The notes beneath the pieces were generated by a model that saw only the letters and a list, made by a program, of their open reading frames with translations, did no database searches and was not told where the DNA came from. Below, in pieces: positions 2,349-28,846 of a stretch of DNA of 64,000 nucleotides (position 1 is the first letter of the stretch; every line of letters begins with the position of its first letter). This DNA comes from Asparagopsis taxiformis (Eukaryota > Rhodophyta > Florideophyceae > Bonnemaisoniales > Bonnemaisoniaceae): NCBI GenBank assembly GCA_030407315.1, contig JALQPE010003140.1, positions 1 through 64,000 on the forward strand. The letters run 5' to 3'. The position numbers and the translations under genes are program-made.

Positions 2349-2693
2349 GGTTGTTGAGTTGGAAAGGAAAAGAGATGGTTGACGTTGACGTATTCGAGTG
2401 ATGTGGATGGTATGTTTCACGTTAAGTTGAAGAATGGTCGTGAACGCCAATCGCTGGAAATAATAACACAATACAACCGAAATTTGTTAGGTACACACCT
2501 ATCGTGACCGCTGGAATGCAAGACAGGCAATCGAGATGTGAGTGTCCGTTCAGAACGGGCCCGAGTCGGGCTCTCGAAACCTGACGAGGTGGCGTGAAGC
2601 AGGCAGTGTCCTTGATGTGTAATGTGTTAAAATTACAGCTGTCAAGCTAGGCGGCTTTTGGGGCGGCTGCGAGCACCCCTTTATCCGGGGAAC
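2349..2693. other. Intergenic, upstream of the ParB-like gene
   Basis: No gene or clear motif is visible. It must contain the 5' leader of the minus-strand ParB-like gene; no unambiguous TATA box was found. Confidence 0.4.
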
Positions 2694-4010: not shown

Positions 4011-7000
4011 CTAATTCCATGCTCTAAACGCTGTCCCATAATGAACGTAGAGCTCCTGCCCCGGACGGATATCGCGGATTGCACGTACTACAATGATCTT
4101 CGGATTTTCTAGGTCCTTCGCCTTGAGCTTCTTCCCCGTCGAACCGCTGCTGTAGTTCTCGACAAACTCGACGTTGGCCATCCGCCTGGTGTCTTCCGCC
4201 GGAGTGTCCTCACCTCGCAAATACCGCGGGTCGTTGATGAACTGCGCCGAACAGAACGGAGCCGGAACAATCCAAATTGGATGCTCGATGTTTTCGTCGT
4301 CCTCCGCTGTTGCATACAGCTTGATAGCATACATCAAGAATGTTTCCTTCGTTATCGCCATGTGACCCTCTCCGTACGCGAACCTCATCGACTCCTTGCT
4401 CATATCAGAGTACACAACAGTTCCGTAGTATGCACATACTTCGTCACCAACATTAAATGTCTGTTCAGCGAAGAGCCCTCTTCCTGCATTTGGATGCTTA
4501 ATCAGCGATGGTCGAACGCTCAATTTTTTCGCAACACAATCGTGTGCCCGCATCACGCGAGGGTTTTCAGTTTGCAACCAGCGGCGCAGGGAAGGTGGCC
4601 AATAATGTACCGGTTTCTCCATGTGCTCGCGCGACGCAATCGACTCTGGGCACAGCTGCCAGAGGTACTGCCGAATATATTTCGGGAACCTCTGGTACAG
4701 GGGAAGGCCAGGTGGGGGTTCGATGATCCTGCGTTCCCTCTGCGTACGCATCGTGACAGAGGGGGACGCCAAGAACTTCTCAGCACTCTGTTTCGCTTCT
4801 GTCGTGACCCTCATGTCAGTGTTGTTTGAAAGAATTACACGTGACATGACTGCACACAGCTTTGGAAGCGATCGTACCACACACAATTTGTCCATGTCAC
4901 TGCCGACGAAAACACGGTGCTCAGGCAAGCTCATAGCTGCTTTTCCCGTTGCGAAAGTGCCAGAGAATGGATCGACAACAATATCACCAGGCTGTGAATG
5001 CTGGCTGATCAACTCCATCATGAGAGCGACGCTCTTCTGCTCTGCACGAACTCTGACCGTAGCACCGGTTGTGCTCCTTGTTCGCCACACCATCTCATTC
5101 GAATCGATGGCGGGCATATTGATGGTGACGTTGCACCACGCCGGGTACGTGCCGTCCATGTATCCGTGGTTCCTATAGGCCACCATCTCGCTTCCGGTCT
5201 TGAACGGAACACCTCGCTTCCAGAAGTGGATAGCGACCTCTGCCATGTTCATGCGTTGGTACCTCTTCCGCCCCGGCATTTGATAGAGGTGCCCAGGTAG
5301 TCGGACAAACAACAGAGGTACCTCGTCAACGAAGAAAACTGAATTCCGAACGACGTCCTCCTCCTCCTCGTCCTCCTCCTCATCCGCACTTTCTTCGCCA
5401 CTGTGCTGCGATGCTTCGGAGTCCGAATTCATGGACGTAACCTCTTCTTCATCCGACCCGTCATCACTGGCAGCAGTATCGGTTGGGCCTTCTGACTGCG
5501 GTCCTTTGTACGTTTCCAAGTAATGGAACCATTCGTAGAACTGCAAAACCGAGCAGAACACGATGCCGTGGCCACCGGGGCGCAACAGCTCGTCAAACAC
5601 TTCGATGCTAGCCTGCATATCTTCTGCAGTTAGCCTGTCGTACGAAGAGTTGGAATCGTTCCTCTTACGACGAACATTGTAGGGCGGATCAGTCAGAATG
5701 AGCTGAACGTTGCCCGTGATGGGCACGTGTTCTCGGCTCTCGTCGGCACTGACCAAATCTTCGAAAGGGACGTCGTACACCCGGCAATACTGACTCATTT
5801 TCGAAAGAAAGTCCTTTGCGAGAGCCTGCCCTTCACTTTCCTGCTCTTCTGTCGCATGGGGTGACGGTGACGGGGGAGACGGCCCTTGGGCAGTAAGACT
5901 GGTCCTCCCAGGTCCAAGTTGAAGCCTGGTTGTGTGTCTTGTCGACGGAACCAAACCTCTCCCTCCTGTGTTGCGACGAGTGGGAGTGTCATCAACCGGC
6001 TTGGGGACCTTTTCTGCGTCCGCGGCTTGTGGTGCCGGGCGGAGGACAGCCATAACGTCTTCGTCGAGGGTGTCAAAATACGCTGGCAGCTTGTCCGGAT
6101 TTCCGCTTGAGAAGTATATTTCCAGTGCCCCCCAGCGGTCGGACTCCGGCCAGGTGTACAGGTCCGGGTTGACGATAAGAAACTGCAACCGGTCGAAGAA
6201 CTTCCTCACAAGGTCCCTAAATGCACTGTGCTGCGCACTGGTTCTTGTCTCTACTTTTCCACCATATCCATCAGGATGAGATAGGGGAGCTTTGTTGTGG
6301 TAGAGATCTAGCTTCTGCTCCATCGGTGCGAATAGACCTTCATCGAGCACGTCAAACCAATGCTCACTGCTGTCGAAAATGATGTACGGCGCCATCAACT
6401 CTTCGAAGCTGGAAAACTTTGCGGCGTAGGCCACATCGGTCCAAGCATGGTATAAAACTTGAACCACGTAACAAGCTCGATTAGTGCTTTTCCGATGGGC
6501 TGGGACGCGTGCGGCTTCGTTCCCCTCTTCGGCCGCATCTCCTATTCGGCGACGCGGCAGGTTCTTGTTGTGATTTCGGATGATAGACAACGCTTGGAAA
6601 TACATCAATACCTCGAACGTTTCCGGTGGAGCAAGAACGAAGGCGCTTGGTTCCCCGCGCTGCGGCGCCTGTAGTGGCGAAGGAAGCATGTTACATCCAA
6701 TAAGGAAGGTCTGCGGCACGATCCCAGAAAGGATGCAGTGCTCAACCCATTGCCCGATACGCTCATCCTGTCTTGAAAACTCGGCAATGGGTAATGCCAG
6801 ACGAACAATCTGCTTGGCTCGCTCAACGTTCATCTCTGCCATGACGATTTCGGCAACATCCGCCTCGACTCCAGCATTCTTCGAACGACCGCTGAAGGAC
6901 ATGCTGAGTCGACCTTGCAGCGCCACAAATTGTTCTTCCGTGCCCTGCGCAACCCAAGCGCCAAGGTCCGCGTATGTGAAACCTCCCGGCTTGTCCGTCA

Positions 7001-7208
7001 AGTCTGCGAAACTTGAGTGGGCGAATAAATCCAGCAAGAGGCGGAGGAAGTCTTTGCCAGCGAGAGTAGTTTCGCGGGCGGCGCGACCTACGTTTCGACG
7101 TGTACCCATGTCACTAGAATCCTCCCAAGGGCTAGCGGGTTCGCGCAGAATTGGCACGGTTGCGTCGTCAACGATCGGATTGCTGTTGCGCCTGCGCTTA
7201 TTCGTCAT
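4011..7208 (-). CDS. Amino-DNA-methyltransferase fused to a SET domain (1065 aa)
   Basis: The start is the first ATG (7206-7208, MTNKRRRNS). Residues 1-430 form a helical region that matches, in order, the middle of the 20372-23881 protein (for example PYIIFDSSEHW versus PYMVFDSEKFQ). A beta-class N6/N4 methyltransferase follows: motif IV LTDPPYNVRRK at about residue 506 (DNA 5681-5692), RPGGHG, a long acidic insert (about 565-625), HFWKRG, RAEQK, then motif I PGDIVVDPFSGTFAT at about 745. DPPY is more typical of adenine-N6 than cytosine-N4 enzymes, but does not prove it. The C-terminus is a SET domain: AGRGLFAEQ (about 910), YYGTV, FINDPRY, ANVEF and QELYVHYGT (about 1050). No Cys-rich pre- or post-SET is visible. 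The gene is uninterrupted and looks functional. It lies between inverted arrays of repeat A. Confidence 0.85.
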   Translation of the reverse strand: MTNKRRRNSNPIVDDATVPILREPASPWEDSSDMGTRRNVGRAARETTLAGKDFLRLLLDLFAHSSFADLTDKPGGFTYADLGAWVAQGTEEQFVALQGRLSMSFSGRSKNAGVEADVAEIVMAEMNVERAKQIVRLALPIAEFSRQDERIGQWVEHCILSGIVPQTFLIGCNMLPSPLQAPQRGEPSAFVLAPPETFEVLMYFQALSIIRNHNKNLPRRRIGDAAEEGNEAARVPAHRKSTNRACYVVQVLYHAWTDVAYAAKFSSFEELMAPYIIFDSSEHWFDVLDEGLFAPMEQKLDLYHNKAPLSHPDGYGGKVETRTSAQHSAFRDLVRKFFDRLQFLIVNPDLYTWPESDRWGALEIYFSSGNPDKLPAYFDTLDEDVMAVLRPAPQAADAEKVPKPVDDTPTRRNTGGRGLVPSTRHTTRLQLGPGRTSLTAQGPSPPSPSPHATEEQESEGQALAKDFLSKMSQYCRVYDVPFEDLVSADESREHVPITGNVQLILTDPPYNVRRKRNDSNSSYDRLTAEDMQASIEVFDELLRPGGHGIVFCSVLQFYEWFHYLETYKGPQSEGPTDTAASDDGSDEEEVTSMNSDSEASQHSGEESADEEEDEEEEDVVRNSVFFVDEVPLLFVRLPGHLYQMPGRKRYQRMNMAEVAIHFWKRGVPFKTGSEMVAYRNHGYMDGTYPAWCNVTINMPAIDSNEMVWRTRSTTGATVRVRAEQKSVALMMELISQHSQPGDIVVDPFSGTFATGKAAMSLPEHRVFVGSDMDKLCVVRSLPKLCAVMSRVILSNNTDMRVTTEAKQSAEKFLASPSVTMRTQRERRIIEPPPGLPLYQRFPKYIRQYLWQLCPESIASREHMEKPVHYWPPSLRRWLQTENPRVMRAHDCVAKKLSVRPSLIKHPNAGRGLFAEQTFNVGDEVCAYYGTVVYSDMSKESMRFAYGEGHMAITKETFLMYAIKLYATAEDDENIEHPIWIVPAPFCSAQFINDPRYLRGEDTPAEDTRRMANVEFVENYSSGSTGKKLKAKDLENPKIIVVRAIRDIRPGQELYVHYGTAFRAWN

Positions 7209-7504
7209 AATGGAATGAGTGGAAAATTCGGTACAGGATGGCGACCGCTCGGCGAGACAGTCAAATTTGACGACGTATCTCGTGACGTTTGCACTCTTTC
7301 GTGAGGAACACTGGTTGATATCGAACGGAACAGAGTATACGGGTACACAGCACTGGAAAGGTCTTGAAACCCGTAACCGGTGTAGGTAATAAGTTGTGAC
7401 GGATACGTGGTAGAGAAAAAATTTTAAAAAGATTGTGATTCCCTGCCTTTGAGTGTTGTACTGCAAGGCCGCCAGTCACATAGGTTGACACAGGTGCCTC
7501 ACGC
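7209..7504. other. 5' flank of the methyltransferase-SET gene
   Basis: No gene is visible. The open frame of the gene continues upstream to about 7466 but without ATG, so the ATG at 7208 is preferred. Confidence 0.4.
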
Positions 7505-11966: not shown

Positions 11967-14900
11967 TTATTCTTCTTCATTATCATCTGTGAATTGGTAA
12001 TCAGTGTTGGTGTAGAAGCGGTTGAGATAGAAACGGTGGTCCGACCAGTGCATTTGTTTCGTAAATGGCTTGACTGGAAAGTTACTTCGTACGATGTGCA
12101 CGGTGCCAGATATAGTAGATGCAGGAATGAGGTCAAACCAAGGACCACCTGCACTGTGGGATGCAGTGTCATTGCTGTCAACGGATCCGTTGTCCGGGTC
12201 CCATGTGGACCACTTTAAACAAATGCACCCAAGTGATTTTTCCACAGCGGTTTTTGGGGCAAAGCAGGTCATATACTGAACGAAAGCGAGTTCTACAGGT
12301 TGAAACAGGTTTGGAGACTGCAGGCGTACCAGTGCCAGGACGCGCCCTACCCATATGGTTCTGTAGTCATCGGCAGTTCCGGAGATGACGACAAAGGAGT
12401 ACTGCGATCTCTTTGCGGGGCCGAACGATGAAGTTGCAAAGACGCGCTGCTGCTTGTGCCTCGACACGTTTGTGGGGCGAAGCATGCCACTGTGCGGGTC
12501 AAAGTCGTCGGCATCTGGGACGTACCCTCCCATGACGTAGGCGGACTTTACCACGGTGACGGAAATGTCCATGTCATGTATTGGAGGGCCTTCTGCCGTG
12601 GCGCGCAGTCTAGCGAGGGTGAGGAACGCTTGTGCAGCTGTGTCACCGAGTTGCTGGAATAGCGTTATGGTGCCAGACGGGAACGAGGAGTTGTGCAGCG
12701 GCAAAAGAGTGGCAGGATCGGGCTGTCCGTCGATATCTGCAACGAGGAGGGTTGCATCGGGCAGCAGGGAGGCAAAGTCGTGCAGTGCAACGGTGAATCC
12801 GTCGCGAACGAGTACTGCACCGTCTGTGGGCGATATCATGCGTGCGTTTCCCAATGTGTTCGATGGGGTATGACCAGTTGGAGTGGCCAAGGAGAATTCC
12901 ATGTGGCGAATAGTCTCTTCCATGGCTGTGGAGCGCCTTCGAGAGGTTTTCCTATAACTCTGTTTGAACAGAAGATGCGAGTGTTCGTAGGGGCCTGCAT
13001 CAATGTGTTCCAGGGCGCCATATCTCTGCAAGTCACCGGGAAGATGGTCTAGAAGATGGAACTTGAAAGTTTTGAGACCTGTGGTGTGGAATGGGCCGAG
13101 GGTGGAGAGCATTGATTGTTTGAAATAGGAAATGGAGTTCTGGAGGCTTTCTAGTTCGGCGGCAGTCCAGTGCTTGATGCGACCGCGTTTCATGACCCAT
13201 GCGACGAGGTCAGAGTATTGCGTGCAGATGGAAGTGAGGGGGGCTGTATCTACTTCGTCACAGCATGTGTCAATGAATGCTGCGATGAAAGGGAACACCA
13301 TGTCGACATGGTGATAGTCTTTGGCTGCGAGCATGCCGCGTATGCCGTCCTCCGTGAAGAGGCCGTTCAAATTGGTGCCCTTCTCACCCTTGGAGAAGTC
13401 GACATGAAGACCGGTGATGTAGTAGTCGCGTTCGATAGCGGACAGAATGCTGTTTGAGCCGGCGAGGATGGATTTTTTCACCTTCTTGAAGGTGCGAGGT
13501 GTCCCGGAATGGGAGGCAGTGGTGGTGAGGTCTGGGGAGCTGAGGCGGTGGACAATGCACTGTTTGATGAGCTTTGAGATGCCGAGGTGGAGATTGTGCA
13601 GAGGCTCGAAGGAGAAAATGTTGTAGGGGTCTAGGGGACTGTTGGTGGGTAAAAGAGCGGTCGATTCGAGGACAGAGTGTTGTTCGAGGAGGGAGAGAGC
13701 TTCGAGCGGAGCAGTTGTATGCTCCTGAGCGCTCTCTTGGCGTGCAGAGCGTGTATCATCGAGGGAGCGGGGCTGGTGTGGCGCGCTGGATTCAAGTTGA
13801 GTGGCGGGGATGTAGCAGCGGTGGCAGGGATGTGTGGTGGTAGTGCTGTTGCGAGTGCATGAGAGCTCTTTGGCCTCTGGAAAGTCGCAGCAATAATTGG
13901 CTAGGATGGGAAAGCATTGGCGGGCAGTTGCAGTGGAGTCTGTGCAGGGGAACCCGGAAGAGAACGCGGTGGATAGGGACGAAAACACTTTTTCGAGTGC
14001 TTTATGAAGAATATCAATTTTGCGAGCGCGACTAGCAGAACTAGAGGTTGTCGGCATTTCATCACCGAACAAGGCGTTGGACGAAGGGTTAACAATGTAC
14101 GGAAGATACCCGACGATGGTGAGGCCGGTACGGATGCAGTGGCGACGGAGGGGGGCGGAGAAGTTGAGCAGTGTGACGTGTATGGGGTATGCGACGATTG
14201 CGGAGCTCTTGAGGCTTGTGCTGCTCTTGTCGGAGTACACTTGGAGGAGGCCGGCAAAGGAGGAAGCGGTGGGATCATTTTCCTCTGCCCATACGACCTG
14301 TGGATCTTCCGAGAGCTGCACGCGCTGTCTAGTAACCTGGTGCAGCGTTTTCGCGAATTCTGTGTGTAGGGGATGAGAAAATATTGCGGTGCCGTCTGGG
14401 GCGGTCTGTGGGGAGGGGTGGAAGAGAGTATTTTGGTCGTTAGCCAGTGCTAACTGCCTGCGGAGCATGTCGACTGGGTCGCGGAGGTACAGCTGTGCCG
14501 AGTACTTACCAGTTTTGTCTGGAATGATGTGGCTCTTGTAACCTTCGGTGCGGAAATGTGTTTCGACCATGGAAGCGGTAACGTGGCGACATTCTTCTAC
14601 GGTGCGAACGGCGCTGTTGAACTTTTCTAGGGAGAATGCGGGGTCTTGTAGGATGGTGATGACTTCGCTCACGCGGCCAGCGCCGGCCTTGTACTCGAGG
14701 GTTGTGAGACTGGCGGCGAGGGATTGCACGAGGAGGTCTGCGCGGGAGGGGGTTGAGGTTGGTGGCAGTGAAGCGTCACAGGGTGAGTCGCTGGAGGAAG
14801 CACGACCAGATTCTGGGTCTGGGGAGCTGGGTTGCGGGGAATCATGGTCGCCGTTTCGAGCAGGCTCATGGGTGACGGCAGGGACACGAGCGTTGTTGAA

Positions 14901-15005
14901 ATGTTGGGGAGAGGGGTTGAAACGGTAGCGACACGTTCGCTCATGCAGCGCGAGCGCATAAGCATCTACGCAGTAGTAGAAGCACCCTTCATACTTGCAT
15001 TCCAT
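11967..15005 (-). CDS. Plavaka/CACTA-superfamily-like transposase (1012 aa)
   Basis: The ATG is at 15003-15005. The N-terminus has a C2HC finger (C3, C8, H21, C25). A Ser/Pro-rich linker follows, then a large region with a CHRC motif (HPCHRCYIP), FSFEPLHNLHLGISK (about residues 468-482), and FKFHLLDHLPGDLQRYG with YEHSHLLFKQSYRKTSRR (about 647-695). The LH...H-LG block and the KFHxLxH...RYG...E block are the landmarks of Tnp2/Plavaka-type CACTA transposases; the catalytic DDE residues were not assigned. The 1012-aa length is in the usual range for this group and the frame is intact. A 20 kb element begins about 80 bp upstream of the ATG and has probably displaced its promoter. Identity rests on motif resemblance only. 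Confidence 0.65.
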   Translation of the reverse strand: MECKYEGCFYYCVDAYALALHERTCRYRFNPSPQHFNNARVPAVTHEPARNGDHDSPQPSSPDPESGRASSSDSPCDASLPPTSTPSRADLLVQSLAASLTTLEYKAGAGRVSEVITILQDPAFSLEKFNSAVRTVEECRHVTASMVETHFRTEGYKSHIIPDKTGKYSAQLYLRDPVDMLRRQLALANDQNTLFHPSPQTAPDGTAIFSHPLHTEFAKTLHQVTRQRVQLSEDPQVVWAEENDPTASSFAGLLQVYSDKSSTSLKSSAIVAYPIHVTLLNFSAPLRRHCIRTGLTIVGYLPYIVNPSSNALFGDEMPTTSSSASRARKIDILHKALEKVFSSLSTAFSSGFPCTDSTATARQCFPILANYCCDFPEAKELSCTRNSTTTTHPCHRCYIPATQLESSAPHQPRSLDDTRSARQESAQEHTTAPLEALSLLEQHSVLESTALLPTNSPLDPYNIFSFEPLHNLHLGISKLIKQCIVHRLSSPDLTTTASHSGTPRTFKKVKKSILAGSNSILSAIERDYYITGLHVDFSKGEKGTNLNGLFTEDGIRGMLAAKDYHHVDMVFPFIAAFIDTCCDEVDTAPLTSICTQYSDLVAWVMKRGRIKHWTAAELESLQNSISYFKQSMLSTLGPFHTTGLKTFKFHLLDHLPGDLQRYGALEHIDAGPYEHSHLLFKQSYRKTSRRRSTAMEETIRHMEFSLATPTGHTPSNTLGNARMISPTDGAVLVRDGFTVALHDFASLLPDATLLVADIDGQPDPATLLPLHNSSFPSGTITLFQQLGDTAAQAFLTLARLRATAEGPPIHDMDISVTVVKSAYVMGGYVPDADDFDPHSGMLRPTNVSRHKQQRVFATSSFGPAKRSQYSFVVISGTADDYRTIWVGRVLALVRLQSPNLFQPVELAFVQYMTCFAPKTAVEKSLGCICLKWSTWDPDNGSVDSNDTASHSAGGPWFDLIPASTISGTVHIVRSNFPVKPFTKQMHWSDHRFYLNRFYTNTDYQFTDDNEEE

Positions 15006-17259: not shown

Positions 17260-17660
17260 CTGGATGTCGGGTCCTAGTATTCCGCCATATGTACTAGAGA
17301 AAGTGGATGTCGGGTCCTAGTATTCCGCCATATGTACTAGAGAAAGTGGATGTCGGGTCCTAGTATTCCGCCATATGTACTAGAGAAAGTGGATGTCGGG
17401 TCCTAGTATTCCGCCATATGTACTAGAGAAAGTGGATGTCGGGTCCTAGTATTCCGCCATATGTACTAGAGAAAGTGGATGTCGGGTCCTAGTATTCCGC
17501 CATATGTACTAGAGAAAGTGGATGTCGGGTCCTAGTATTCCGCCAAACGTACTAGAGAAAGTGGATGTCGGGTCCTAGTATTCCGCCATATGTACTAGAG
17601 AAAGTGGATGTCGGGCCCTAGTATTCCGCCATATGTACTAGAGAAAGTGGACGTCCGCAT
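17260..17660 (+). repeat. 43-bp tandem array, about 9 copies
   Basis: The unit begins GTGGATGTCGGGTCCTAG and ends GTACTAGAGAAA; starts at 17260, 17303, 17346 and every 43 bases to 17604, with a divergent tenth start at 17647. Copies are near identical. The right terminal repeat holds only about three reversed copies (32430-32575). Confidence 0.95.
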
Positions 17661-17986
17661 CCAAAAAATTTTTATTTTTTTTTGGACGCGGACGTTCATT
17701 TGTTCTAGTAAATCTCGGGGCCGACTAGGACCCGTACTAGAGAGACTGGACGTCCGCGTCCACTTCCGAAAACACAGACGATGTCTTCAAGCAGTCCGTA
17801 GACATGTATGGCTGCAACATGGATCTCGTTTTCATGGCAGACTTCCGTCGCGGCTCGGAGTATCAGCAAAGGTTCATCTTGCTCATAACAGCTCTCTGGA
17901 CACGCATGCGAGATCTGCGTCAGTTGAGTAGGACGACAAGAGGATTTGGTAATCCTTTCGTTCGTGTTTTGATTGAAGTTTTAAAG

Positions 17987-19795
17987 ATGTCCGAGCCGGT
18001 TGCTGCTCACAAAAAGATGGAGCCTCCGCTCGAACATTTCTACTCCGAGCTCAAGAACAATGGGTCAGGAACCGAGACTGTTATAGCGAACAGTATCGCG
18101 GAGACCCTCCTGCACTTCAATACCGACGACAACAGCGGTACGAAGCATGCTCTCGTCTCCGACGAAACGTATGAGCAGCTTCGCTTTTCCACGGGCGTTG
18201 TGGACATGGAAGAAGGCCAAAGGGTCATTGTTCATAATGAACAGCCATCTGAAGATGCGCCGAAGCCATCTGCGCCCCAATCAGATGAGCCTTCTACCCC
18301 TTCTACCCGTTCTGGTCCTACTCCTCCTGCCCCTTCTACCCCTCCTGCTCCTTCTACCCCTCCTGCTCCTCGTGCTCATTCTACCCCTTCTACCCCTTCT
18401 ACCCCTTCTACTCCTGCTCCTACTACCCCTCCTCCTCCTGCCACTTCCGTTCCCGCCCCTTCCACCCCTCCTGCTACCCCTCCTGCTCCTGCCACTTCCG
18501 TTCCTGCAGTTGAGCAGGCTCAAGGAACCCCTGATGCCAGTGTGGCAGGTTCTGAGAAGCAATTGGGATCTGTTCTCCTCCGTCTCCCTCGCAATGCACC
18601 ACCGCTTGCGGTGAATGAGCCAGTCGAGACACTTCGCAGGTCGAAACGGCAGAGAACGGAGAGTCTACGGGTTGGCGGCGACAGTCAGGCAGAGTCGGAG
18701 GTAGAAGAAGAGTCCGAAGAGCCCCTTCCGAAGCGCAGAAGACTGGAAGTTAACCGTACGGTTAAACGTTCAACCGAGGAGATTCCATTGTTCAGCGATG
18801 AGCAGGAAAATCCCCTCCCCGACAGGGTAGTCGATGAACGGATTATGGATATTCTCCCGAACACCATACCGTCAGACTCTAGGGTCAAGTACTATATCGA
18901 CAGCAAGCTGTACGAAACAATCCGACAGGAGATTTTGAGTGCAGCTGCTGCCGATATGAATTGTATAGCGTGCAGTGGTCCAGCTTGCTGTGCAGAGAAG
19001 TTCTTTGCAACAGCTAGGTCAACTCTTAATCTCTTGGGTGCCCATGTACTCAGTGGTATCTTCCGTTCTTCGACTGTGGGCAACGCAGCACATGAACTGT
19101 TCACGTTCTACGCCCAGAAGTTCAAACCTGTTCATTCTTCTGCTGAAGACAGTTCCAATGATCCCTGGCATCAGATTCGAAACAAGGGTGAGGTAACGGC
19201 AGAGCAACAGGCCTCTCGTTTGGGAAGGTTCTCTATCTCAAGGAAGAAGATTTGCGACGATCTCGAGCAGATGGATTAACATCAATTCAAGAACAAGATG
19301 ATTCTCGAGGTCGGCAAAGCAATCTGTGCCGAGCTAATGTACTTGGGCCTAGGAATCCATGAGCCTGTGGCCTTTCCTAAAACCGGTTTACGTCTTTTGC
19401 TGACCTCTGATGGTGCTCCAGATCAAGACTTGCACACAGACCTACCGGTGGTCATCAATGATTCCGATTTCCCACCTGGAAGATCGTACTTTCTGATGGC
19501 AAGCGCGGCTGATGGGTTCTGGCTTCGTGGAGCGTATTTCAGCCACGTCTGTTTGACGCGTGCAGACGCTGAGAAGTACAAGACGCCTGTTATGGACATC
19601 TACGTGCCACCGTATTCTCTCTTCATCGGTCGTGGTGACTTCTACCATGGAGGCAAAGGATTCAGTAGTTCAGCGGAAAATCGCCTAACATATGGTCTTC
19701 CGGTTCGTTCTCATCTCTACCTTTTAAGTGACGAAGAAGAATTGGCGGATGCTATCGAAACAGTCAACTACTGGGATGCACCTAGTGCGCGATAA
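17987..19795 (+). pseudogene. 2-oxoglutarate/Fe(II)-oxygenase-like protein with one in-frame stop
   Basis: The ATG at 17987 (MSEPVAAHKK) is chosen; the frame is open from an ATG at 17804, inside the terminal-repeat border. Residues about 90-180 are Pro/Ser/Thr repeats, followed by basic clusters (RRSKRQR, LPKRRRLE) and a CIACSGPACC motif. An in-frame TAA at 19277-19279 interrupts the gene; the homologue in the inverted-repeat arms has leucine there, so a single TTA-to-TAA change would explain it. After the stop the same frame continues: PKTGLRLLL, DQDLHTDL (H-x-D, about 19425-19445), VPPYSLFIGRGDFYHGG (second His, about 19650) and RLTYGLPVRSH (Arg). This H-x-D...H...R order fits a double-stranded beta-helix oxygenase. 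The substrate is unknown; a methylated-DNA or histone demethylase is an inference from context. Confidence 0.55.
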
Positions 19796-20371: not shown

Positions 20372-23300
20372 CTACTTCTCTGCAGTCCAGTAGCGCGATC
20401 CATAGTCAACGAATATCTCTTCCCCAGCTCGAACATCTACTACAACCTGCGCTAGGATGAGATCAGGTTTTGCTACTGCATACTTGAAGTCGCAAGTAGG
20501 ATTGACGTCTTTGTGAACTCGGAACTCTGCATTTTTTCTGCGTTGCACATTTGCAACTCTCTCCATTCCGTCAATGGTCCTACTGTCGTTGAGGTAGCTG
20601 CAGACATTGTATTCCGCTGGTACAAGATATATCTTGTCTACCGGTGCTTCTTCTCCGATGACACTGGTCTCCATCTCCATGTTGAAGTTTTGGAATCTTT
20701 CACCAGTACAACCGAACCCGTCCGGTCCGTACAAGCGACTGCGTTGCGGTTCATTCTCCCCAATCTTCCCGTATAAAATTGTCCCATTATACCATCCAAC
20801 AACAGAGCCCCTCTCTAAATCTTCTGCGGCAAAAACCCCCCATCCTCCCTCTCGAACTGTCGATGCAGCAACAATAACGTTGTGAAAGGAGGCATCTACT
20901 GCAAGCATCATCTCAGGGTCAACGGAGAAAACCTTGCCTAAATCTTCTACGCCCCATTCATTCATTGGGACTTCGGCAAGTCTTCGGAGCATGCTTTGAT
21001 CCCGCGCAACAGAGGAGACAAATCGCAACATATGCAGTGGTAGTGAAGATACCGACGGGAATCCATCAGGCGCATCACTTCGATGTCGAAGTCTTTCACT
21101 TCCTACATTGCTCCTTATCGAGTAATTCCATTCTTTGTTAGCGAGAATACTCGATATGTCATTTTTGGTTGCCTCCCCAAAAACTCCATCTCGACCTTGC
21201 CTAACAAAGCAATCCAGCAACAACGGCTGAGCTGATCCATGGCATGTGGCGTCTTTTTCACATCCAATAAACTTGCGATACAGACCATCTCTCATTGTCA
21301 TGCAAGCTATTGCAGTAGAATACGTTCCGGAGAATAGATCTACCACAATGTCTCCTGGCTTTGAAAACCTTGAAATAAGCTCTCGAAGTATGGACAGAGG
21401 CTTCTGCTCCGCACGTAGCCTTTTGTCTTCGAAGTTCAATGACTCACCAGGTCCGAGCTTTGGGCAGTTGTCGATTGCGTTCACGTACCCTGGATGTCGT
21501 GAAAGGTCACGGTTATGCAAAGAATAATCAACCATTTCAAACGCGGCAGCTCCCATCCCACGTTTGAAACTGTGCACAACAAACTCGTGAATGTTGTGTA
21601 ATGAACACGATTTGTTCATTGGGTTTTGGATGAATACGTAGGGACGACGGCTTAGAATGAGAGGAACATCGTCTGTACGCATGGATTGTTCCCCGCTTTC
21701 TGCATTTTGAAGAGCTTCTCCCCACCCAACCAACTGTTTGATACTGGAAAATATCAGGGCATGTCCTCCAGGGCGCAGCATTCGAGAAATGTCCTTTCCA
21801 GTACGAAACATTTGTGCGCTATTGATGTCATCATAGTCTGAATTGGTCTTGCCTTTCTCCCTCCGCGTGTTGAAGGGTGGATCGGTGAGCACAAGTTGTG
21901 CTTGTCCATCAATAGTATTCCCTGAAAGCATGCCAATGGAATCAGTGTTAACCTGGTGCACTAACCTCGAGGCTGTACAGTTGTAAGCCACGCAAAATCT
22001 CTTCATGACCTTTTTCAATTGCACAATATGATCCGGTACCCCCTCTTCCTCACCCACTGCCTCCGCTGACGGTGTATCCTCCGCAACATCTTGCATAACC
22101 GTGTCCATTGCGGACGAAGCCCTCCCATCCATGCTGGATGTATACTGGGATCCAGAGTCATTGGTAGGTTTCCTTCCACCTGTACCTAAACGGCGAGTGC
22201 TGTGCTGCATTGATTCATTCGACTCAAGACGATCTCTTTCTCGAGAAAGAGATCTGGATGCTGCGTTGCGCTGTTCAGTCTCGTAGAGAATTTTCAAGTC
22301 GCAGACATCAACTGGCTTCACACGCATTTCACGGTTCCAGTTCTTCCATACCTTGAGTCTTTCGTGACCATCCAATGCGATGGATTGTTCTATCCTTGCT
22401 TCGATGAAGGCGTTCAATCCGAACCGGTCAGGCTGATGGAAAAATTTAGTGCGCAGCCCTTCCATCTGGTTCGTACTTGATCCGAATACATCAATGCCTA
22501 TCATACAGTCATACACAGACACTAGTACGGCTTCTGTCAAAGACCTCAACCTTGCATCAACAGAGATATCCAAAGTGCCTGGATAACCTGCATTCTCGCG
22601 GAGTTTCACTACCGGGGACGGAAGCAGAAGATCTGAGTAGTGGTCAGGATGTGCCCACCCGTCAGTACGATTAGCAAGACAGATGAATTGGAATTTCTCA
22701 GAGTCGAAAACCATGTATGGGCGACACATCATGTAGGCGCTTTCGAAGCCCAGAATCATCGCTGTTGTATCCCAGGCAGACATGACCCTTTCCAAAACGA
22801 CACCCACAGACTCTCCGTTTGCTCTTGTGCGCTGGAAAGGGGCGAATGTAGAAGTCTCTGTATCCCTCCCAGTTCTACGACGCTTCCTACCCCGGCGAAT
22901 GGGTGCATTTCTGCGTCTAGTGAGGGCAATGTGCACAAATGAAATCATAAACATCAGCCTTCCAAATACTTTGTCTTCTTCTGTTAATGTTCTACCCTGT
23001 GCACTTCTTCCAGAACGAAAATACTCACAGGTGAGGACTTCGCGACACAATGGAGAAGCAATTTCACCACTTGTAGACATCCCAAACAACTGCTCGCCGA
23101 CTGATGCTCTTTTCTCGAGAGATGTGGGAAACTCCTTCATCGCAAAATTGTTCTGAACTTCCACCGGCCTTCCCCATACAATACAGAACAACTGCCACAG
23201 ACAGCGAACCATTTTGGGATTGGGTTCTTCTATGCGACTGTAGGGGCGAAGCACACGAAGAATTGACAAGCAACTCTCGTACTGTGGCTGCCTCAGCACA

Positions 23301-23881
23301 GTTTCTGCCAAATCTTCGCGCTGAGATCCCACGGCGAGCCATCGCCTAATGGATGGCATATTCACGTCGCGAATTGTAACCATGCTTGAGCTTCCTTGTT
23401 TTTCACCTGCGTTTCGCTCCCAGTACCCATCTCTAAGATCCAAAGTAAGATTCAGGTACTCAATGAAAGTCATCCTCTTCTGCCTGGATGCCATATCGTT
23501 CGCGTTTGATGCTTTCACACTATCTAGAAGGAAAGCAGCACTTGTAATCGGAGATATGTCGACTTCTTCTTCAATCATAGGAACAGTGAAATCACGCGGA
23601 AGCTCACCGTTCTCTATGAGCTTGATTACAGCTTTCGAACGATGCGCACCATCCAGCACCTCTACCTCACCGGCAATGATCCGACCGGTAATTGGGTTGT
23701 TGTCATTGTAGCCGTAAACCTGAATGCTCTCGGCAATAACATCGACGTGCCTGTAGTCGATTTCTCGAATCTCGACATATCTTTTGATCTTGAATGGGTC
23801 GATGTGCAATAGCCCATTGCGCCGCTCACCATGAAGGGGACGCCCAGAGGTGCTCGCTGGATTTCTCTTCTCAGAGGCCAT
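20372..23881 (-). CDS. ParB domain + amino-DNA-methyltransferase + SET domain, single polypeptide (1169 aa)
   Basis: The ATG is at 23879-23881 (MASEKRN). Domain order: ParB_N-like domain at residues about 25-130, with VLDGAHRSKAV at about 77; helical region with KASNAND and QKRMTFIEYL; a middle domain (about 200-560) shared with the 4011-7208 protein; a beta-class methyltransferase with motif IV LTDPPFNTRREKG (about 667), RPGGHALIF, VVHSFKRG, RAEQKPLSILRELISRFSKP and motif I GDIVVDLFSGTYST (about 847); then a SET domain with GGWGVFAAEDL (about 1013), WYNGTILYG, YLNDSR and AGEEIFVDYGSRYW at the end. No frameshift over 3.5 kb implies selection or youth. ParB plus amino-methyltransferase fusions are known in bacteria and phages; the SET addition is eukaryotic. 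A perfect 24-bp palindrome (about 22230-22253) lies within the coding region. Confidence 0.9.
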   Translation of the reverse strand: MASEKRNPASTSGRPLHGERRNGLLHIDPFKIKRYVEIREIDYRHVDVIAESIQVYGYNDNNPITGRIIAGEVEVLDGAHRSKAVIKLIENGELPRDFTVPMIEEEVDISPITSAAFLLDSVKASNANDMASRQKRMTFIEYLNLTLDLRDGYWERNAGEKQGSSSMVTIRDVNMPSIRRWLAVGSQREDLAETVLRQPQYESCLSILRVLRPYSRIEEPNPKMVRCLWQLFCIVWGRPVEVQNNFAMKEFPTSLEKRASVGEQLFGMSTSGEIASPLCREVLTCEYFRSGRSAQGRTLTEEDKVFGRLMFMISFVHIALTRRRNAPIRRGRKRRRTGRDTETSTFAPFQRTRANGESVGVVLERVMSAWDTTAMILGFESAYMMCRPYMVFDSEKFQFICLANRTDGWAHPDHYSDLLLPSPVVKLRENAGYPGTLDISVDARLRSLTEAVLVSVYDCMIGIDVFGSSTNQMEGLRTKFFHQPDRFGLNAFIEARIEQSIALDGHERLKVWKNWNREMRVKPVDVCDLKILYETEQRNAASRSLSRERDRLESNESMQHSTRRLGTGGRKPTNDSGSQYTSSMDGRASSAMDTVMQDVAEDTPSAEAVGEEEGVPDHIVQLKKVMKRFCVAYNCTASRLVHQVNTDSIGMLSGNTIDGQAQLVLTDPPFNTRREKGKTNSDYDDINSAQMFRTGKDISRMLRPGGHALIFSSIKQLVGWGEALQNAESGEQSMRTDDVPLILSRRPYVFIQNPMNKSCSLHNIHEFVVHSFKRGMGAAAFEMVDYSLHNRDLSRHPGYVNAIDNCPKLGPGESLNFEDKRLRAEQKPLSILRELISRFSKPGDIVVDLFSGTYSTAIACMTMRDGLYRKFIGCEKDATCHGSAQPLLLDCFVRQGRDGVFGEATKNDISSILANKEWNYSIRSNVGSERLRHRSDAPDGFPSVSSLPLHMLRFVSSVARDQSMLRRLAEVPMNEWGVEDLGKVFSVDPEMMLAVDASFHNVIVAASTVREGGWGVFAAEDLERGSVVGWYNGTILYGKIGENEPQRSRLYGPDGFGCTGERFQNFNMEMETSVIGEEAPVDKIYLVPAEYNVCSYLNDSRTIDGMERVANVQRRKNAEFRVHKDVNPTCDFKYAVAKPDLILAQVVVDVRAGEEIFVDYGSRYWTAEK

Positions 23882-24612: not shown

Positions 24613-26021
24613 ATGCAAGACCCAACAGACTTTGTCTCCGAAGGATCAGTCATTGAAGTAGAATGGAGTTTACGAACGAGAGGAAGGAAACAGAAAAAGG
24701 TTTGGTGGGGCGCCAAAGTTTTGAGTACTGCCAAGCCGGACGCGTCCGGAGAACATCGTTTGACTGGAAACTTGTTTGTTACGCTGCAATATCAATCTGA
24801 ACACGGTTTCGACCAGTCAGTCTCTACAGCAAAATTATTCAAGAACAATTCGCTGCTGGACATTGACTCTGGAAACATGCTACGTTGGAGGTTTGGAGAG
24901 CAACTAGCACTAGAGCAGACGATCTCGTCTGCGGGTGAAGACAGTTTCCATAAAAAAGACTGCAAACAAAACTTGTTGAGTCGATCCAAGTCCGAGCCGC
25001 GCTTAGTTTGCGATGAGAGTCCTTTTTTTGCGATGAGAGTCCTCCTGGTCCTAACATCAATGAGGACATATCCAAGCTGTTTCAAAAGGTATCCTACCTC
25101 GAAAGGCAGATTCTCAACTGTCGCGGTTCATCAAGCGCTACTGGACCCATCTTCGGAAACATTGTGTGCGACTACCTGTTCCAGAGAGTTGGCTTAAAAC
25201 TGGACAAACCCTTGTCCTCCAAAATCACGAAGTCTGAAACAGGCCGGGAAGTGAGCTCCTTGGTGCAAGACTATGTGACGGCAAGAGCAGATTGCTCGCT
25301 TGAACAGTTTTCAGAGATTTTCCGGCTATGCGAAGAGAAGAACAACCCAAACACAATTTTCCTGCCGAGCGTCGAGGCGGTTCGAATTTCAACTGGGAGA
25401 GATAAAGAGCTATCGATCCACTTTGGAACATACTCTGACCTCTGCAGTACTTTAGCTCCTTCCATGTATACATTCACTAACTCTACTATTCTGAAGTGGA
25501 AGAAAACACGTCACAATTCTGGCTCTTCTGTCATAAGAGTTTTGGGAACTCTAGCAGACGGTGCTTCCGAAGAGTCTGTTTCGCCTACAAAGGCTGTTCT
25601 TGTTGGTTCCTCTTTATACAGAACATCTGGAAACATGAGGAACACTACCGTTTTGACTCGAGAATCTGATGAGTACGACTATGTCAATTGCAGCTATTCG
25701 TATCCTTTGGAAGCTCGCTTCCTCTCAAGTCGAGAAATGCAGGAGAACTTTGAGCTGCCGGACAGCAAAAATTTCAAACTGGCGAACTCGTTCTCATTGT
25801 CCTGGAAACCTGTTCAGGGTCCTCGTCCATATGGAACTTTCGAGCGCGTTCTCAAGAATGTTGTGTTGGGAACTGCATACTTGAACCTCCCAGCATGCAT
25901 TTTCAGTGGACACACCATCTGCAGCGAGCTAGACACAATTGGACATGACGTTATCGTTGGACAGAATAGTTCTCCTGTAGATGCTCCTCATCCTACCGTA
26001 CACGATGTCGCCTCCGAGTAA
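24613..26021 (+). pseudogene. Tudor-like-fold candidate protein, frameshifted by a 20-bp tandem duplication
   Basis: The family is not recognised. The ATG at 24613 opens MQDPTDFVSEG. Residues about 12-75 (VIEVEWSL, KKVWWGAKVL, LFVTLQYQ) look like a small beta-barrel of Tudor/chromo-barrel type: W-W-x-A-K-V then V-T-L-x-Y. At 25011-25050 a 20-base unit (CGATGAGAGTCCTTTTTTTG) is partly duplicated and shifts the frame; removing one unit restores one reading frame of about 460 codons to the TAA at 26019-26021, including PGPNINEDISKLFQKVSYLE and VCDYLFQRVGLKLDKPLSS. GT-AG splicing does not restore the frame exactly. It is divergent from the methyltransferase gene and convergent with the coiled-coil gene. 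A methyl-lysine reader role would suit the context but is speculative. Confidence 0.5.
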
Positions 26022-26628: not shown

Positions 26629-28152
26629 TCAATCTTCCTCATCAAGGAAAACTTCAACGTAGCTTTCACTCCCATCTTCTTCATTTCCATGTCCGCTACC
26701 CTCCTCAAACGCGGTACTACGCTGTTCCAAGTGTTGTTCATCGAATTTTTCGTTAGTAATTGTCAGTACATCTTCGCAGAGATGCCTCTTACAGATTCGC
26801 TCACTCGGCAACATCGCCTTTCCTAATTGTTTGAGCTCGTCTTGTACACTTTCTTCGAAGGTCTGACCTGATTGTACCTTGAAAATTCCTAGAATCCCGG
26901 AAGCGATTGCATAGACAAATCTGAGTGAATTGCAGGAACGTCGCAGGAAAACCATTCTACTCGTGCATTGAAGGAAAGCAATTGCAGTGTTCAGGGCTAC
27001 CTCCAGGATATTGATTCTCCTTCGAATCATCCTTTTGGCCACACATCCCGATATCTCGACTTCGTACTGAATGATGACAACCATCTCTTTCCGCTCAGCG
27101 ATGAATTGTATCAAGATCTCGGAATTCTTGTCATCCACAACTTTCCGTTCCTCAGGCCTTAGATTTCCGTTGGTCACACGGGTATCGGGGATAACATCCA
27201 TATCTCGAATGAGATCGTGAGTTGGAAACTCGAAAGTGATAGAGGCGTCCGTTTCCAAGACTAGAGCGAACCCCAGTTCGACAAGGAATCGATGGCGCAC
27301 CTGCTCTCTAGACTTGTTCAGGAAACCGAGCACCTTTGTCAGCGCAACTTTCGTAACAGCCAAAGATATTTCACGCTTGCTCAACTGTCCACCATTTCCA
27401 TCTGTTTTCCTCCGCTTCCTAGCCCCTCCGTCAATGCTTCCTGCAGGCTGGTTTCGGCCATCGCCAGTGGCACCATAAACAACTTCTTCGATTATTTTGT
27501 CCGGAATGTACTTGTTCTCCTTCCAGACGTTGAACGCATTCGAATCGCGTCCAGAGCTCGAGCCTTCCACTGTACGGCCTGTACCCGACTTTTCCTTCTG
27601 AATGTTCCGCAGGAGAGACATCACCACTTGGAATCGAAGCTCGATGTTGTTCTTCCCGGTGTTGGATTGGAACACATCCCTCTTGTCATTGCTCTGCTTC
27701 GCAAACATCATTGCAGAGAGCAACCTGCAACCACGGAGGTCGTAGATTCCTTGGTTGGTGTAAATTGTCGCCCCAGCATCAATCTTGTCGACCAGCAAAG
27801 GTACAACAGTTCCAAATACTGCACACAGAAAATTGTAAGAAAACGATAGTTCTGCTGACTGCGAGATGCGCAAACGGTCCCTGTCCTTGTCAGTCATCCC
27901 CTTCTTCGAATTGCCCTGACTCTGCTGTAATAAACCATCACAGATGTCTTTCACACCCTGTAATTCCGTTACTATAAACTCGACGCGACTCATCAGCTTT
28001 TCGATTTGCTGGCGTTGGGACGTTCGATCATCGTCGATTTCATCCATCCTCTCCCCAATACGACGAACTTCCCCAGTCACTGTCCTGAATCCCTCTCGAA
28101 TAATCCCTGCGAGGCAGTCATTTGGATTTTCCTCACGACGCTGAGATTCCAT
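26629..28152 (-). CDS. Coiled-coil nuclear-type protein (507 aa), candidate partner of element mobility
   Basis: The family is not recognised. The ATG is at 28150-28152 (MESQRREENPND). An N-terminal heptad region (about 20-75: GERMDEIDDDR, QQIEKLMSRVEFIVTELQ) suggests oligomerisation. A basic cluster GGARKRRKTDG lies at about 250. The helical core contains KVALTKVLGFLNKSREQVR then HRFLVELGF, similar to a segment of the 761-aa protein at 9604-11889. The tail is acidic (EEGSGHGNEEDGSESYVEVF). The frame is intact. Position at the inner right side of the 20 kb element, on the minus strand, convergent with the Tudor-like gene. Could be a TnpA-like DNA-binding or structural subunit; not demonstrable from sequence alone. 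Confidence 0.6.
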   Translation of the reverse strand: MESQRREENPNDCLAGIIREGFRTVTGEVRRIGERMDEIDDDRTSQRQQIEKLMSRVEFIVTELQGVKDICDGLLQQSQGNSKKGMTDKDRDRLRISQSAELSFSYNFLCAVFGTVVPLLVDKIDAGATIYTNQGIYDLRGCRLLSAMMFAKQSNDKRDVFQSNTGKNNIELRFQVVMSLLRNIQKEKSGTGRTVEGSSSGRDSNAFNVWKENKYIPDKIIEEVVYGATGDGRNQPAGSIDGGARKRRKTDGNGGQLSKREISLAVTKVALTKVLGFLNKSREQVRHRFLVELGFALVLETDASITFEFPTHDLIRDMDVIPDTRVTNGNLRPEERKVVDDKNSEILIQFIAERKEMVVIIQYEVEISGCVAKRMIRRRINILEVALNTAIAFLQCTSRMVFLRRSCNSLRFVYAIASGILGIFKVQSGQTFEESVQDELKQLGKAMLPSERICKRHLCEDVLTITNEKFDEQHLEQRSTAFEEGSGHGNEEDGSESYVEVFLDEED

Positions 28153-28469
28153 CTTCCGTCAAACTTCTCCTCTCGTTCCAATCGCAAAGTGTCACTCCAG
28201 ACGATTTTCCTGCAACAAGAATGCTAGCAATAGTAACAAATAATGCCAACTACTCTACTCATATCCTCGGAAAACGACCGATTTTCTCCTACCTTTTTTG
28301 TAACGGTCATTTCCATGTGACCATGCATCCTCTACACTTCTCACTACTAGTAGCTTCAGAATAGTTTCCTCTCTTCTCTACTTGAACTCACATGCGAACA
28401 CATTGTACAACCCTATCCTGGACAACTATTGCAACATTGAATCTCAGAAAATACCAATCACCAATTACT
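28153..28469. other. 5' flank of the 507-aa gene, no feature seen
   Basis: AT-rich, no coding pattern, no clear TATA box. Confidence 0.4.
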
Positions 28470-28840
28470 ATCAAGGCAGTACTTGCAGGCAGTACAATTC
28501 ACTGCCGGAGCCAGTATATTTTACTGCCTGATTCTAATGCCAGGTCATTTGCCAGGGCAGTACTGTACGGCAGTACATTCCATTGCAGAAATCATCAAAA
28601 ATCACTGCATTGCACTACTGCCCTGTGGTACCAGCAAAAATTACTAGAATTTGCTATCGTACAGTACTGCATTCTGCTACATACCGTACTGCCAGGAAAT
28701 TTTGTATTTTACTGCCTGCGGCACTAGAACTGAAAAAATTAAAATAGTAATTTTACTGCCTCAGGCACTACATTGCTCAGGCAGTGATTTTTACTGCCTC
28801 AGGCAGTAAATTTACTACATTTTTTGATCTCAAACTCAGT
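28470..28840. repeat. Clustered short palindromes of the GGCAGTA...TACTGCC type
   Basis: At least a dozen GGCAGTA or TACTGCC half-sites, several paired as hairpins such as GGCAGTAAATTTACT. They resemble the ACAGTA/TACTGTC subterminal repeats at 37750-38110 and 51430-52190. GC-rich sequence begins sharply after CAGTAGTG at about 28839-28846. Confidence 0.7.
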
Positions 28841-28846
28841 AGTGTC

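What the first reader, a model, noticed from the sequence alone, without database searches (positions are those of the whole stretch)
20372..23881. One polypeptide joining a ParB-type domain, a DNA amino-methyltransferase and a SET histone-methyltransferase-type domain
All three signatures are in one uninterrupted 1169-codon frame: DGAHRSKA (ParB box), LTDPPFN plus GDIVVDLFSGT (beta-class methyltransferase), and GGWGVFAAED...YLNDSR...EEIFVDYG (SET). ParB plus amino-methyltransferase is a known bacterial/phage design, and captured bacterial N4C methyltransferases linked to chromatin readers are known in rotifers. A direct covalent link between a DNA amino-methyl writer and a SET writer, on a transposon, would be a new architecture as far as I know. 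It would allow DNA and histone marks to be laid down together.
Basis: partly seen in the sequence, partly recalled or inferred. Interest (0 to 1): 0.92.

Follow-up and report, generated by a model that had tools for sequence, protein, structure and literature searches.

The report
Transposon enzyme joining DNA and histone methyltransferases
A large jumping DNA element, present in dozens of near-identical copies in what looks like a red alga, encodes one protein that appears able to methylate both DNA and proteins such as histones, so the element may chemically mark its own chromatin.

Summary
On the minus strand, window 23881-20372 is one uninterrupted 1169-codon frame with a ParB-type box, a beta-class DNA amino-methyltransferase and a C-terminal SET domain. 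Pfam and profile-versus-PDB searches support the two catalytic domains; ParB support is weaker (PHROG match plus motif).

It is not a one-off: at least 40 near-identical intact copies lie in the host's 141-Mb genome, and methyltransferase-SET is kept in all 8 sequences aligned (query plus 7 relatives, down to 22% identity). Three such families are in this genome.

The gene sits in a ~23.7-kb CACTA-type transposon (CACTACTG termini, repeat-rich ends) that also encodes a transposase-like protein and two ParB-box proteins with a dioxygenase-like HxD...H...R signature (motif only). The window copy is truncated on one side. The host is most likely a red alga; no C5-cytosine methyltransferase was detected there.

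ParB-methyltransferase proteins on algal transposons are in print, and so are SET genes on transposons. I found no report of the two joined, but the most relevant red-algal paper could not be read. Best reading: a transposon-borne dual writer that marks the element's own chromatin. Activity is untested.

The parts
20372..23881 (-). ParB-box / amino-methyltransferase / SET fusion gene, 1169 codons
   Evidence: ORF and translation; at least 40 intact near-identical copies in the genome
23489..23851 (-). ParB-like N-terminal region (residues 11-131)
   Evidence: PHROG_4272 E 1.6e-6 and PHROG_1033 E 6.3e-5; no Pfam or PDB profile support
23639..23653 (-). DGAHR ParB box (residues 77-81)
   Evidence: DGxHR motif; 12 of 1000 shuffles of this protein have one by chance
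22262..23014 (-). partly conserved middle region of unknown fold (about residues 290-540; e.g. W370, P388 invariant)
   Evidence: alignment A1
21227..21910 (-). beta-class DNA amino-methyltransferase domain (residues 658-885)
   Evidence: Pfam PF01555 E 1.2e-13; PHROG_67 E 2e-23; profile vs PDB: DpnA 1.4e-14, CcrM 1.4e-8
21869..21883 (-). DPPFN catalytic motif (residues 667-671), upstream of the SAM-binding motif: beta order
   Evidence: sequence; D667, P669, N671 invariant in A1
21323..21334 (-). FSGT SAM-binding motif (residues 850-853)
   Evidence: sequence; F850 and G852 invariant in A1
20399..20845 (-). SET domain (residues 1013-1161)
   Evidence: Pfam PF00856 E 2.6e-6; profile A5 vs PDB: KMT2D 1.5e-7, KMT2C, SETD7, EZH2, KMT5A
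20402..20404 (-). codon of SET tyrosine Y1160 (FVDYG)
   Evidence: aligns with the tyrosine of the EELxxDY stretch of KMT2D/KMT2C; invariant in A5
17777..19792 (+). 5'-truncated, interrupted remnant of ORF beta (dioxygenase-like C-terminus; its ParB-box part is missing here), convergent with the fusion gene
   Evidence: 10 of 10 copies compared run on beyond 17777; in-frame stop at 19277-19279 not seen in 12 other copies read there; uninterrupted full-length copies exist
25017..26018 (+). element ORF of unknown function
   Evidence: ORF; no Pfam
26632..28158 (-). element ORF of unknown function
   Evidence: ORF; only sub-threshold Pfam
28345..28844 (.). right subterminal region, rich in GCAGTA/TACTGC
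   Evidence: 12 occurrences in the last 500 bases against a mean of 0.22 per 500 away from the ends; motif chosen after looking
28835..28844 (+). right terminus CTCAGTAGTG (inverted CACTACTGAG)
   Evidence: same end in 9 of 9 other copies whose end is readable, with different sequence after it in each
4011..7466 (-). paralogous MTase-SET gene of a second element (no DGxHR box), 1151 aa from an in-frame TTG; true start not known
   Evidence: Pfam N6_N4_Mtase 4.1e-15 and SET 1.1e-6; 24% identity; 40 of 40 scored genomic matches without stops
807..2471 (-). separate ParB-box ORF (VIDGLHRLNA) near the paralogue
   Evidence: motif only; no PHROG match, no Pfam
11967..15005 (-). Plavaka transposase of the second element
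   Evidence: PF18759 E 1.6e-24

Best explanation
It is a bifunctional epigenetic writer carried as an accessory gene by a giant CACTA-type DNA transposon of a red alga. The ParB-like module and the middle region bring the protein to the element's own DNA, plausibly to the GCAGTA-rich subterminal repeats (inferred). The beta-class domain then methylates an exocyclic amino group, more likely N6 of adenine (inferred from DPPF and from matches to adenine enzymes). The SET domain methylates lysines of nearby chromatin proteins, probably histones (inferred). The joint mark most likely keeps the element expressed or fit to move against host silencing, helped by two co-encoded ParB-box proteins with a dioxygenase-like C-terminus that may remove or alter marks (motif only). 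Shown: frame, domain order, key motifs, copy number, element ends, gene neighbourhood, conservation of the MTase-SET pair. Not shown: expression, catalysis, targets, benefit to the element.
For: Domains. Motifs kept: DPP[FY]N in 7 of 8 aligned sequences (P0009 has DSPWN); SET GxG, N1098 and Y1160 in 8 of 8. Copies: 40 of 40 scored have an open 1174-codon frame. Element: right end in 9 of 9 readable copies; left end CACTACTGTG found in one (C2634) of two copies followed to the left, giving ~23.7 kb with a possible 2-bp duplication. GCAGTA/TACTGC crowd both ends: 10 and 12 in the terminal 500 bases against 0.22 per 500 elsewhere. Transposase-like 1247-codon ORF with a weak local match to the Plavaka protein (E 1e-4). 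ParB-box, dioxygenase-like ORFs alpha and beta. MTases with SET form one side of the tree, 100/100, against 4 non-SET MTases of the same genome. That ParB-MTase proteins of algal transposons may bind and mark their own element is proposed in PMC12477816 (passages).
Against: No expression or methylation data. ParB support is modest, and 5 of the 8 aligned MTase-SET sequences have no DGxHR box, so a fused ParB module cannot be the general way of targeting. SET has Asp where classical SET domains have His in the NHxC motif (motif recalled; YLNDSR seen), so activity or substrate may differ. PDB profile hits do not tell H3K4 from H3K27 or H4K20 enzymes. The dioxygenase assignment has no Pfam, PHROG, PDB or homologue support. 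The 8 sequences were mostly gathered with the full-length query, which favours proteins that carry both domains. Near-identity of copies shows a recent burst, not by itself selection on this gene. A second, wider homologue search returned only the query itself.
Confidence: 0.5

Rival explanations
1. The MTase is the working part and serves transposition directly: it marks the element's ends or newly replicated copies so that the transposase acts only at the right time or on the right DNA, and the SET domain acts on the transposase or another element protein rather than on histones.
For: Transposase-like ORF in the same element; GCAGTA-rich repeats crowd both ends; SET substrate class not resolved by the profiles. 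Effects of DNA methylation on transposition are discussed in PMC3627910 (passages).
Against: Does not explain why SET stays joined in 8 of 8 aligned sequences or why two non-SET MTase families of the same genome end in Cys/His-rich tails instead.
Confidence: 0.2
2. The protein represses its own element (self-restraint): it writes a silencing mark to hold the copy number at a level that the host tolerates, like the 4mC/H3K9me3 loop of bdelloid rotifers.
For: In rotifers a captured bacterial amino-MTase fused to a chromodomain is proposed to work with SETDB1 variants to silence transposons (PMC8885841, abstract).
Against: In that case the enzyme is a host gene; here it is carried by the element, and at least 40 near-identical copies point to successful recent spread.
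Confidence: 0.15
3. The SET domain is a dead or non-enzymatic chromatin-binding module and only the DNA methyltransferase is active.
For: Divergent SET (28 bits); Asp in place of His after the conserved Asn.
Against: GxG, N1098 and Y1160 invariant in all 8 aligned sequences down to 22% identity.
Confidence: 0.13
4. Chance or artefact: fortuitous read-through, mis-assembly, or bacterial contamination.
For: None found.
Against: Intact at 40 of 40 scored genomic places; same order in 8 of 8 aligned sequences; SET fused to the MTase in one frame; host nuclear genes and a plastid-like contig in the same assembly.
Confidence: 0.02

Closest known systems
ParB-like + amino-methyltransferase accessory proteins of algal transposons (Ectocarpus Sola1-1_Ec32, 1104 aa; similar proteins cited for green and red algae)
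   Same: ParB-like domain plus 4mC/6mA-type MTase in one large protein, on the strand opposite to the transposase, on a giant DNA transposon (PMC12477816, passages).
   Different: No SET domain mentioned in the passages seen; our element is CACTA-type and also carries two ParB-box, dioxygenase-like genes. The cited sources (Iyer 2011; Petroll 2025) are not held and were not read.
SET-carrying transposons (HarbingerS and MuDR families of Phytophthora)
   Same: A SET histone-methyltransferase gene captured by a DNA transposon (one sentence in PMC12730594).
   Different: No fusion to a DNA methyltransferase is described in that passage; other superfamilies and hosts.
TET/JBP-encoding fungal transposons (KDZ, EnSpm, Plavaka and others)
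   Same: DNA-modification enzyme on EnSpm/Plavaka and other DNA transposons (PMC12730594, abstract and section 3.2).
   Different: Those are oxygenases; our dioxygenase-like ORFs have no sequence match to a known family and stand beside an amino-MTase.
Bdelloid rotifer N4CMT (chromodomain + bacterial amino-MTase)
   Same: Bacterial-type amino-MTase fused to a chromatin module in a eukaryote (PMC8885841, abstract).
   Different: There a histone reader fused to a DNA writer, in a host gene; here a putative histone writer fused to a DNA writer, on a transposon.
Bacterial beta-class adenine MTases (DpnA, CcrM, MboIIA, RsrI)
   Same: MTase domain by profile.
   Different: No ParB or SET; the best phage and plasmid matches that cover the domain are 23-28% identical.

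Membership tests
Beta-class DNA amino-methyltransferase (PF01555) | score over Pfam gathering cut-off | tested here: met
   52 bits vs 26.7; 8 of 8 aligned sequences match at E <= 0.01
Beta-class DNA amino-methyltransferase (PF01555) | catalytic DPP[YF] N-terminal to SAM-binding FxG | tested here: met
   DPPFN 667-671, FSGT 850-853
Beta-class DNA amino-methyltransferase (PF01555) | methylates a DNA amino group (6mA or 4mC) | not testable with these tools
   needs an assay or native long reads
SET-domain lysine methyltransferase (PF00856) | score over Pfam gathering cut-off | tested here: met
   28.2 vs 22.4 bits; 8 of 8 aligned sequences match at E <= 0.01, although the database's precomputed Pfam listed SET for only 4 of 7 hits; KMT2D 1.5e-7 by profile
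SET-domain lysine methyltransferase (PF00856) | GxG, Asn of the NHxC motif and catalytic-position Tyr kept | tested here: met
   invariant in A5; Tyr aligned to KMT2D/KMT2C
SET-domain lysine methyltransferase (PF00856) | His of NHxC (motif recalled) | tested here: not met
   Asp in 7 of 8 aligned sequences, Gly in P0007
SET-domain lysine methyltransferase (PF00856) | lysine methylation of a histone | not testable with these tools
   needs an assay
ParB/Srx-like domain | profile match | tested here: inconclusive
   PHROG matches E 1.6e-6 and 6.3e-5; 1.7e-5 in P0004, none in P0005; no Pfam, no PDB profile hit
ParB/Srx-like domain | DGxHR box | tested here: met
   residues 77-81; 12 of 1000 shuffles by chance
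CACTA/EnSpm-type transposon | CACTA..TAGTG inverted termini | tested here: met
   CACTACTGTG / CTCAGTAGTG: left end in one of two copies followed, right end in 9 of 9 readable copies
CACTA/EnSpm-type transposon | subterminal repeats (recalled as typical) | tested here: met
   GCAGTA/TACTGC 15 in the left and 12 in the right terminal 1000 bases, shuffle means 0.47 and 0.42, 0 of 500 shuffles as high; motif chosen after looking
CACTA/EnSpm-type transposon | 2-3 bp target duplication | tested here: inconclusive
   possible AC in the one copy with both ends; a 2-bp match is weak
CACTA/EnSpm-type transposon | recognisable transposase of this group | tested here: inconclusive
   1247-codon ORF; no Pfam for its first 908 residues nor for the matching C-terminal piece of another copy; weak local match to the Plavaka protein, E 1e-4
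2OG-Fe(II)/TET-JBP dioxygenase (ORFs alpha, beta) | HxD...H...R signature | tested here: met
   HTD 251-253, H323, R341 (numbering of L017:4351-5460) shared by alpha and beta
2OG-Fe(II)/TET-JBP dioxygenase (ORFs alpha, beta) | profile or fold match | tested here: not met
   no Pfam, PHROG or PDB match; no Tet_JBP in the genome, but that search rang in no control either; fold prediction unavailable
Plavaka transposon (this element) | PF18759-type transposase in the element | tested here: not met
   (first 908 residues of the ORF); the neighbouring element does have it

The most novel reading that the evidence does not exclude
The mobile elements of this red alga run their own chromatin code: DNA amino-methylation and lysine methylation are written by one fused enzyme and trimmed by co-encoded dioxygenases, in a host with no detectable C5-cytosine methyltransferase, so that transposons rather than the host own the main DNA-modification system.
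Probability: 0.2. Interest if true: 0.92.

Novelty: new variant of a known kind. Interest (0 to 1): 0.72.

Why it matters
A covalent DNA-writer/histone-writer would couple two epigenetic layers in one step, which eukaryotes are usually thought to do through separate proteins. Finding it on a multi-copy transposon makes it directly testable whether a mobile element marks its own chromatin, and whether amino-methylation of DNA is a real, functional mark in red algae. It also offers a natural scaffold for dual epigenome editing. A fusion that has diverged to 22% identity while keeping both sets of key residues suggests that the coupling itself is useful.

Tried and rejected
Rejected: chance read-through or contamination. 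Rejected: a fungal host, my first guess from the Plavaka hit; the plastid-like contig with phycobiliprotein genes points to a red alga. Rejected: the inverted repeats at 16-17.4 and 32.4-34.5 kb as the element's ends; genome copies put the right end at 28844 and show the window copy truncated at 17777. Led nowhere: viral-contig scan; phage and plasmid tblastn (only MTase-domain matches); homologue search with the 370-aa dioxygenase-like frame; homologue search with alignment A1, capped at 8000 candidates, which returned only the query itself; PDB profile searches for ParB and the dioxygenase; Rfam and tRNA scans; shared ancestry of the ORFs 26632-28158 and 9604-11889.

Literature seen: PMC12730594 (abstract, outline, section 3.2, passages); PMC12477816 (passages and some reference entries); PMC8885841 (abstract and outline); PMC3627910, PMC13297926, PMC8566409, PMC11244446 (passages). 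Not held, not read: Petroll et al. 2025 on Bostrychia, and Iyer et al. 2011. 'Not found in print' rests on the listings, in a library of open papers only.
Full report
WHAT IS THERE. The 3510-base stretch 20372-23881 is an open frame on the minus strand from ATG (23881) to stop. Pfam finds N6_N4_Mtase (PF01555) at residues 662-879, E 1.2e-13, and SET (PF00856) at 1013-1161, E 2.6e-6, both above their curated cut-offs. PHROGs add a phage DNA-methyltransferase family (PHROG_67, E 2e-23) and, for residues 11-106 and 38-131, PHROG_4272 (E 1.6e-6) and the 'ParB-like partition protein' PHROG_1033 (E 6.3e-5).

HOMOLOGUES. A search of 5.8 billion proteins returned 7 proteins at E <= 1e-3, from the 7994 candidates scored: one identical to the query and six others. 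With the second copy-type in the window (4011-7466, 24% identity) the query and these make an alignment of 8 sequences; the other seven are 22-44% identical to the query. All 8 match both PF01555 and PF00856 at E <= 0.01, although the database's precomputed Pfam listed SET for 4 of the 7 hits only. The full-length query favours relatives with both domains. DPP[FY]N is kept in 7 of 8 (P0009 has DSPWN), and SET GxG, N1098 and Y1160 in 8 of 8. The DGxHR box is in 3 of these 8 only, so ParB is an optional part and MTase-SET the constant core. A profile of the 8 sequences matches, in the PDB, DpnA (1.4e-14), CcrM (1.4e-8), RsrI and MboIIA. A profile of the SET parts matches KMT2D (1.5e-7), KMT2C, SETD7, EZH2 and KMT5A, and its C-terminal stretch aligns Y1160 with the tyrosine of the EELxxDY stretch. 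Which histone residue, if any, is the target cannot be read from this. Asp (Gly in one) stands where classical SET proteins have His in NHxC (that motif is recalled). A second homologue search with the alignment returned only the query itself.

HOST. The window lies in G000, 141.5 Mb in 3156 contigs. Contig C469 holds 11 of the 13 phycobilisome-family (PF00502) matches and one of the RNA-polymerase beta matches. The assembly also has eukaryotic RPB2 and beta-tubulin in long uninterrupted frames.

COPIES AND ELEMENT. In that genome 40 of 40 scored matches to the protein have an open 1174-codon frame without stops at 99-100% identity, out of 3787 first-look candidates, so 40 is a lower bound. 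Over the gene, 7 of 7 copies compared differ from the window copy at 3 bases (2 synonymous codons, 1 not), against 8-9 mismatches and 40-42 gap columns in the 1500-base 5' flank: a recent burst. Ten copies were fetched with flanks. In 9 of 9 copies whose end is readable the shared DNA stops at ...CTCAGTAGTG (window 28844) and is followed by different sequence; the tenth runs into a contig end. On the other side 10 of 10 run on beyond window 17777, so the window copy is truncated there. The left end was sought in two copies. In C2295 none was found in 12.3 kb; that side runs into a Ty1/copia-like element. In C2634 it is CACTACTGTGTCTGAAATC, giving an element of about 23.7 kb (C2634:70129-93869) with a possible 2-bp AC duplication. 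Such CACTA termini are those of CACTA/EnSpm elements. GCAGTA or TACTGC occurs 10 and 12 times in the left and right terminal 500 bases, against 0.22 per 500 bases in the parts read away from the ends (the motif was chosen after looking at the sequence). Order in the full element: left end; transposase-like ORF of 1247 codons (no Pfam for its first 908 residues; weak local match to the Plavaka transposase next door, E 1e-4); ORF alpha (+); ORF beta (+); the ParB-MTase-SET gene (-); ORFs at window 25017-26018 (+) and 26632-28158 (-); right end.

ORFS ALPHA AND BETA. Alpha is one frame of 1101-1184 codons in 9 of 10 copies; beta is one frame of at least 967 codons in 5 of 10, and 33 of 56 listed genome matches of beta are full-length without stops. 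Both carry a DGxHR box in their first fifth and end in a domain sharing HTD, H and R in a spacing like that of 2OG-Fe(II) dioxygenases (spacing recalled). In the window, beta is truncated and interrupted, and alpha and the transposase are absent, so of these genes only the ParB-MTase-SET gene is whole.

A WIDER PATTERN. The genome has 2605 first-look candidates for PF01555, of which 150 were scored; all 150 exceed the cut-off. Of five places sampled from that list, one encodes the P0004 family, with SET (504 residues, 1 mismatch to P0004). The other four (three families, since C2216 and C2077 are nearly the same) show no SET in the 2400 bases read. The two read in full (C609, C197) have a DGxHR box, the MTase and a short Cys/His-rich tail. 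In a tree of 8 SET-bearing and these 4 non-SET MTase domains the SET-bearing ones form one side with 100/100 support, as expected from one fusion; with 12 rows and a midpoint root this is suggestive only. Three MTase-SET families (P0001, P0004 and P0002 types) are thus in this one genome. For SET, 150 of 1661 first-look candidates were scored: 10 have E <= 3e-11, the other 140 score 33-36 bits, and many of these coincide with P0002-type copies (for instance C68, C110, C480). No C5-cytosine methyltransferase (PF00145) was found although the search rang in 10 of 14 controls. Absence in a draft genome searched exon by exon is not proof, and DNA methylation has been reported in a red alga (Gracilariopsis chorda; PMC8566409, passages).

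MECHANISM. The best reading is a self-targeting dual writer: ParB-like region and middle region for targeting, DNA amino-methylation, lysine methylation, in favour of the element. Binding and marking of their own element by ParB-MTase proteins of algal transposons was already proposed in PMC12477816. Rivals are direct roles in transposition, self-restraint as in rotifers (PMC8885841, abstract), and an inactive SET module. Sequence alone cannot decide between them.

NOVELTY. Known: ParB-MTase on algal transposons; SET genes on oomycete transposons (PMC12730594, one sentence); TET/JBP on fungal transposons (same paper); a chromatin reader fused to an amino-MTase in rotifers. Not found in my searches: a ParB-MTase-SET fusion. 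The red-algal paper most likely to mention it was not held, so I call it a new variant of a known kind.

Noticed in passing
window 42417-63995: Giant inverted repeat: arms of 6554, 1606, 1121 and 395 nt at 100% complementarity around a centre near 53.2 kb, with 24 listed copies of a short palindromic unit (TTACAGCAAAGTCATCGT..); a foldback element or an assembly artefact.
   Followed up: no
window 3500-9100: The segment with the second MTase-SET gene lies between inverted repeats and is flipped relative to two other genomic copies (L024, L026).
   Followed up: partly
L034+L039 (C609) and L036+L040 (C197): Other MTase families of the same genome: DGxHR box + N6_N4_Mtase + C-terminal Cys/His-rich tail that may be a zinc finger, no SET seen.
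   Followed up: partly
whole genome G000: No match to the C5 DNA methyltransferase family PF00145, against 2605 first-look candidates (150 scored, all over the cut-off) for the amino-methyltransferase family.
   Followed up: partly
window 28824-30853: G+C-rich ORFs just outside the element's right end (up to 61.5% G+C in 30-32 kb); no family found apart from a sub-threshold hit.
   Followed up: no
window 17175-17741 and 32430-32659: 43-bp tandem repeats beside the truncated end of the element, with an inverted copy 15 kb away.
   Followed up: no
L029:3-4253: A Ty1/copia-like element lies at the left side of the transposon copy in contig C2295, next to a transposase ORF cut short there (RVT_2 E 5.6e-24).
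   Followed up: no
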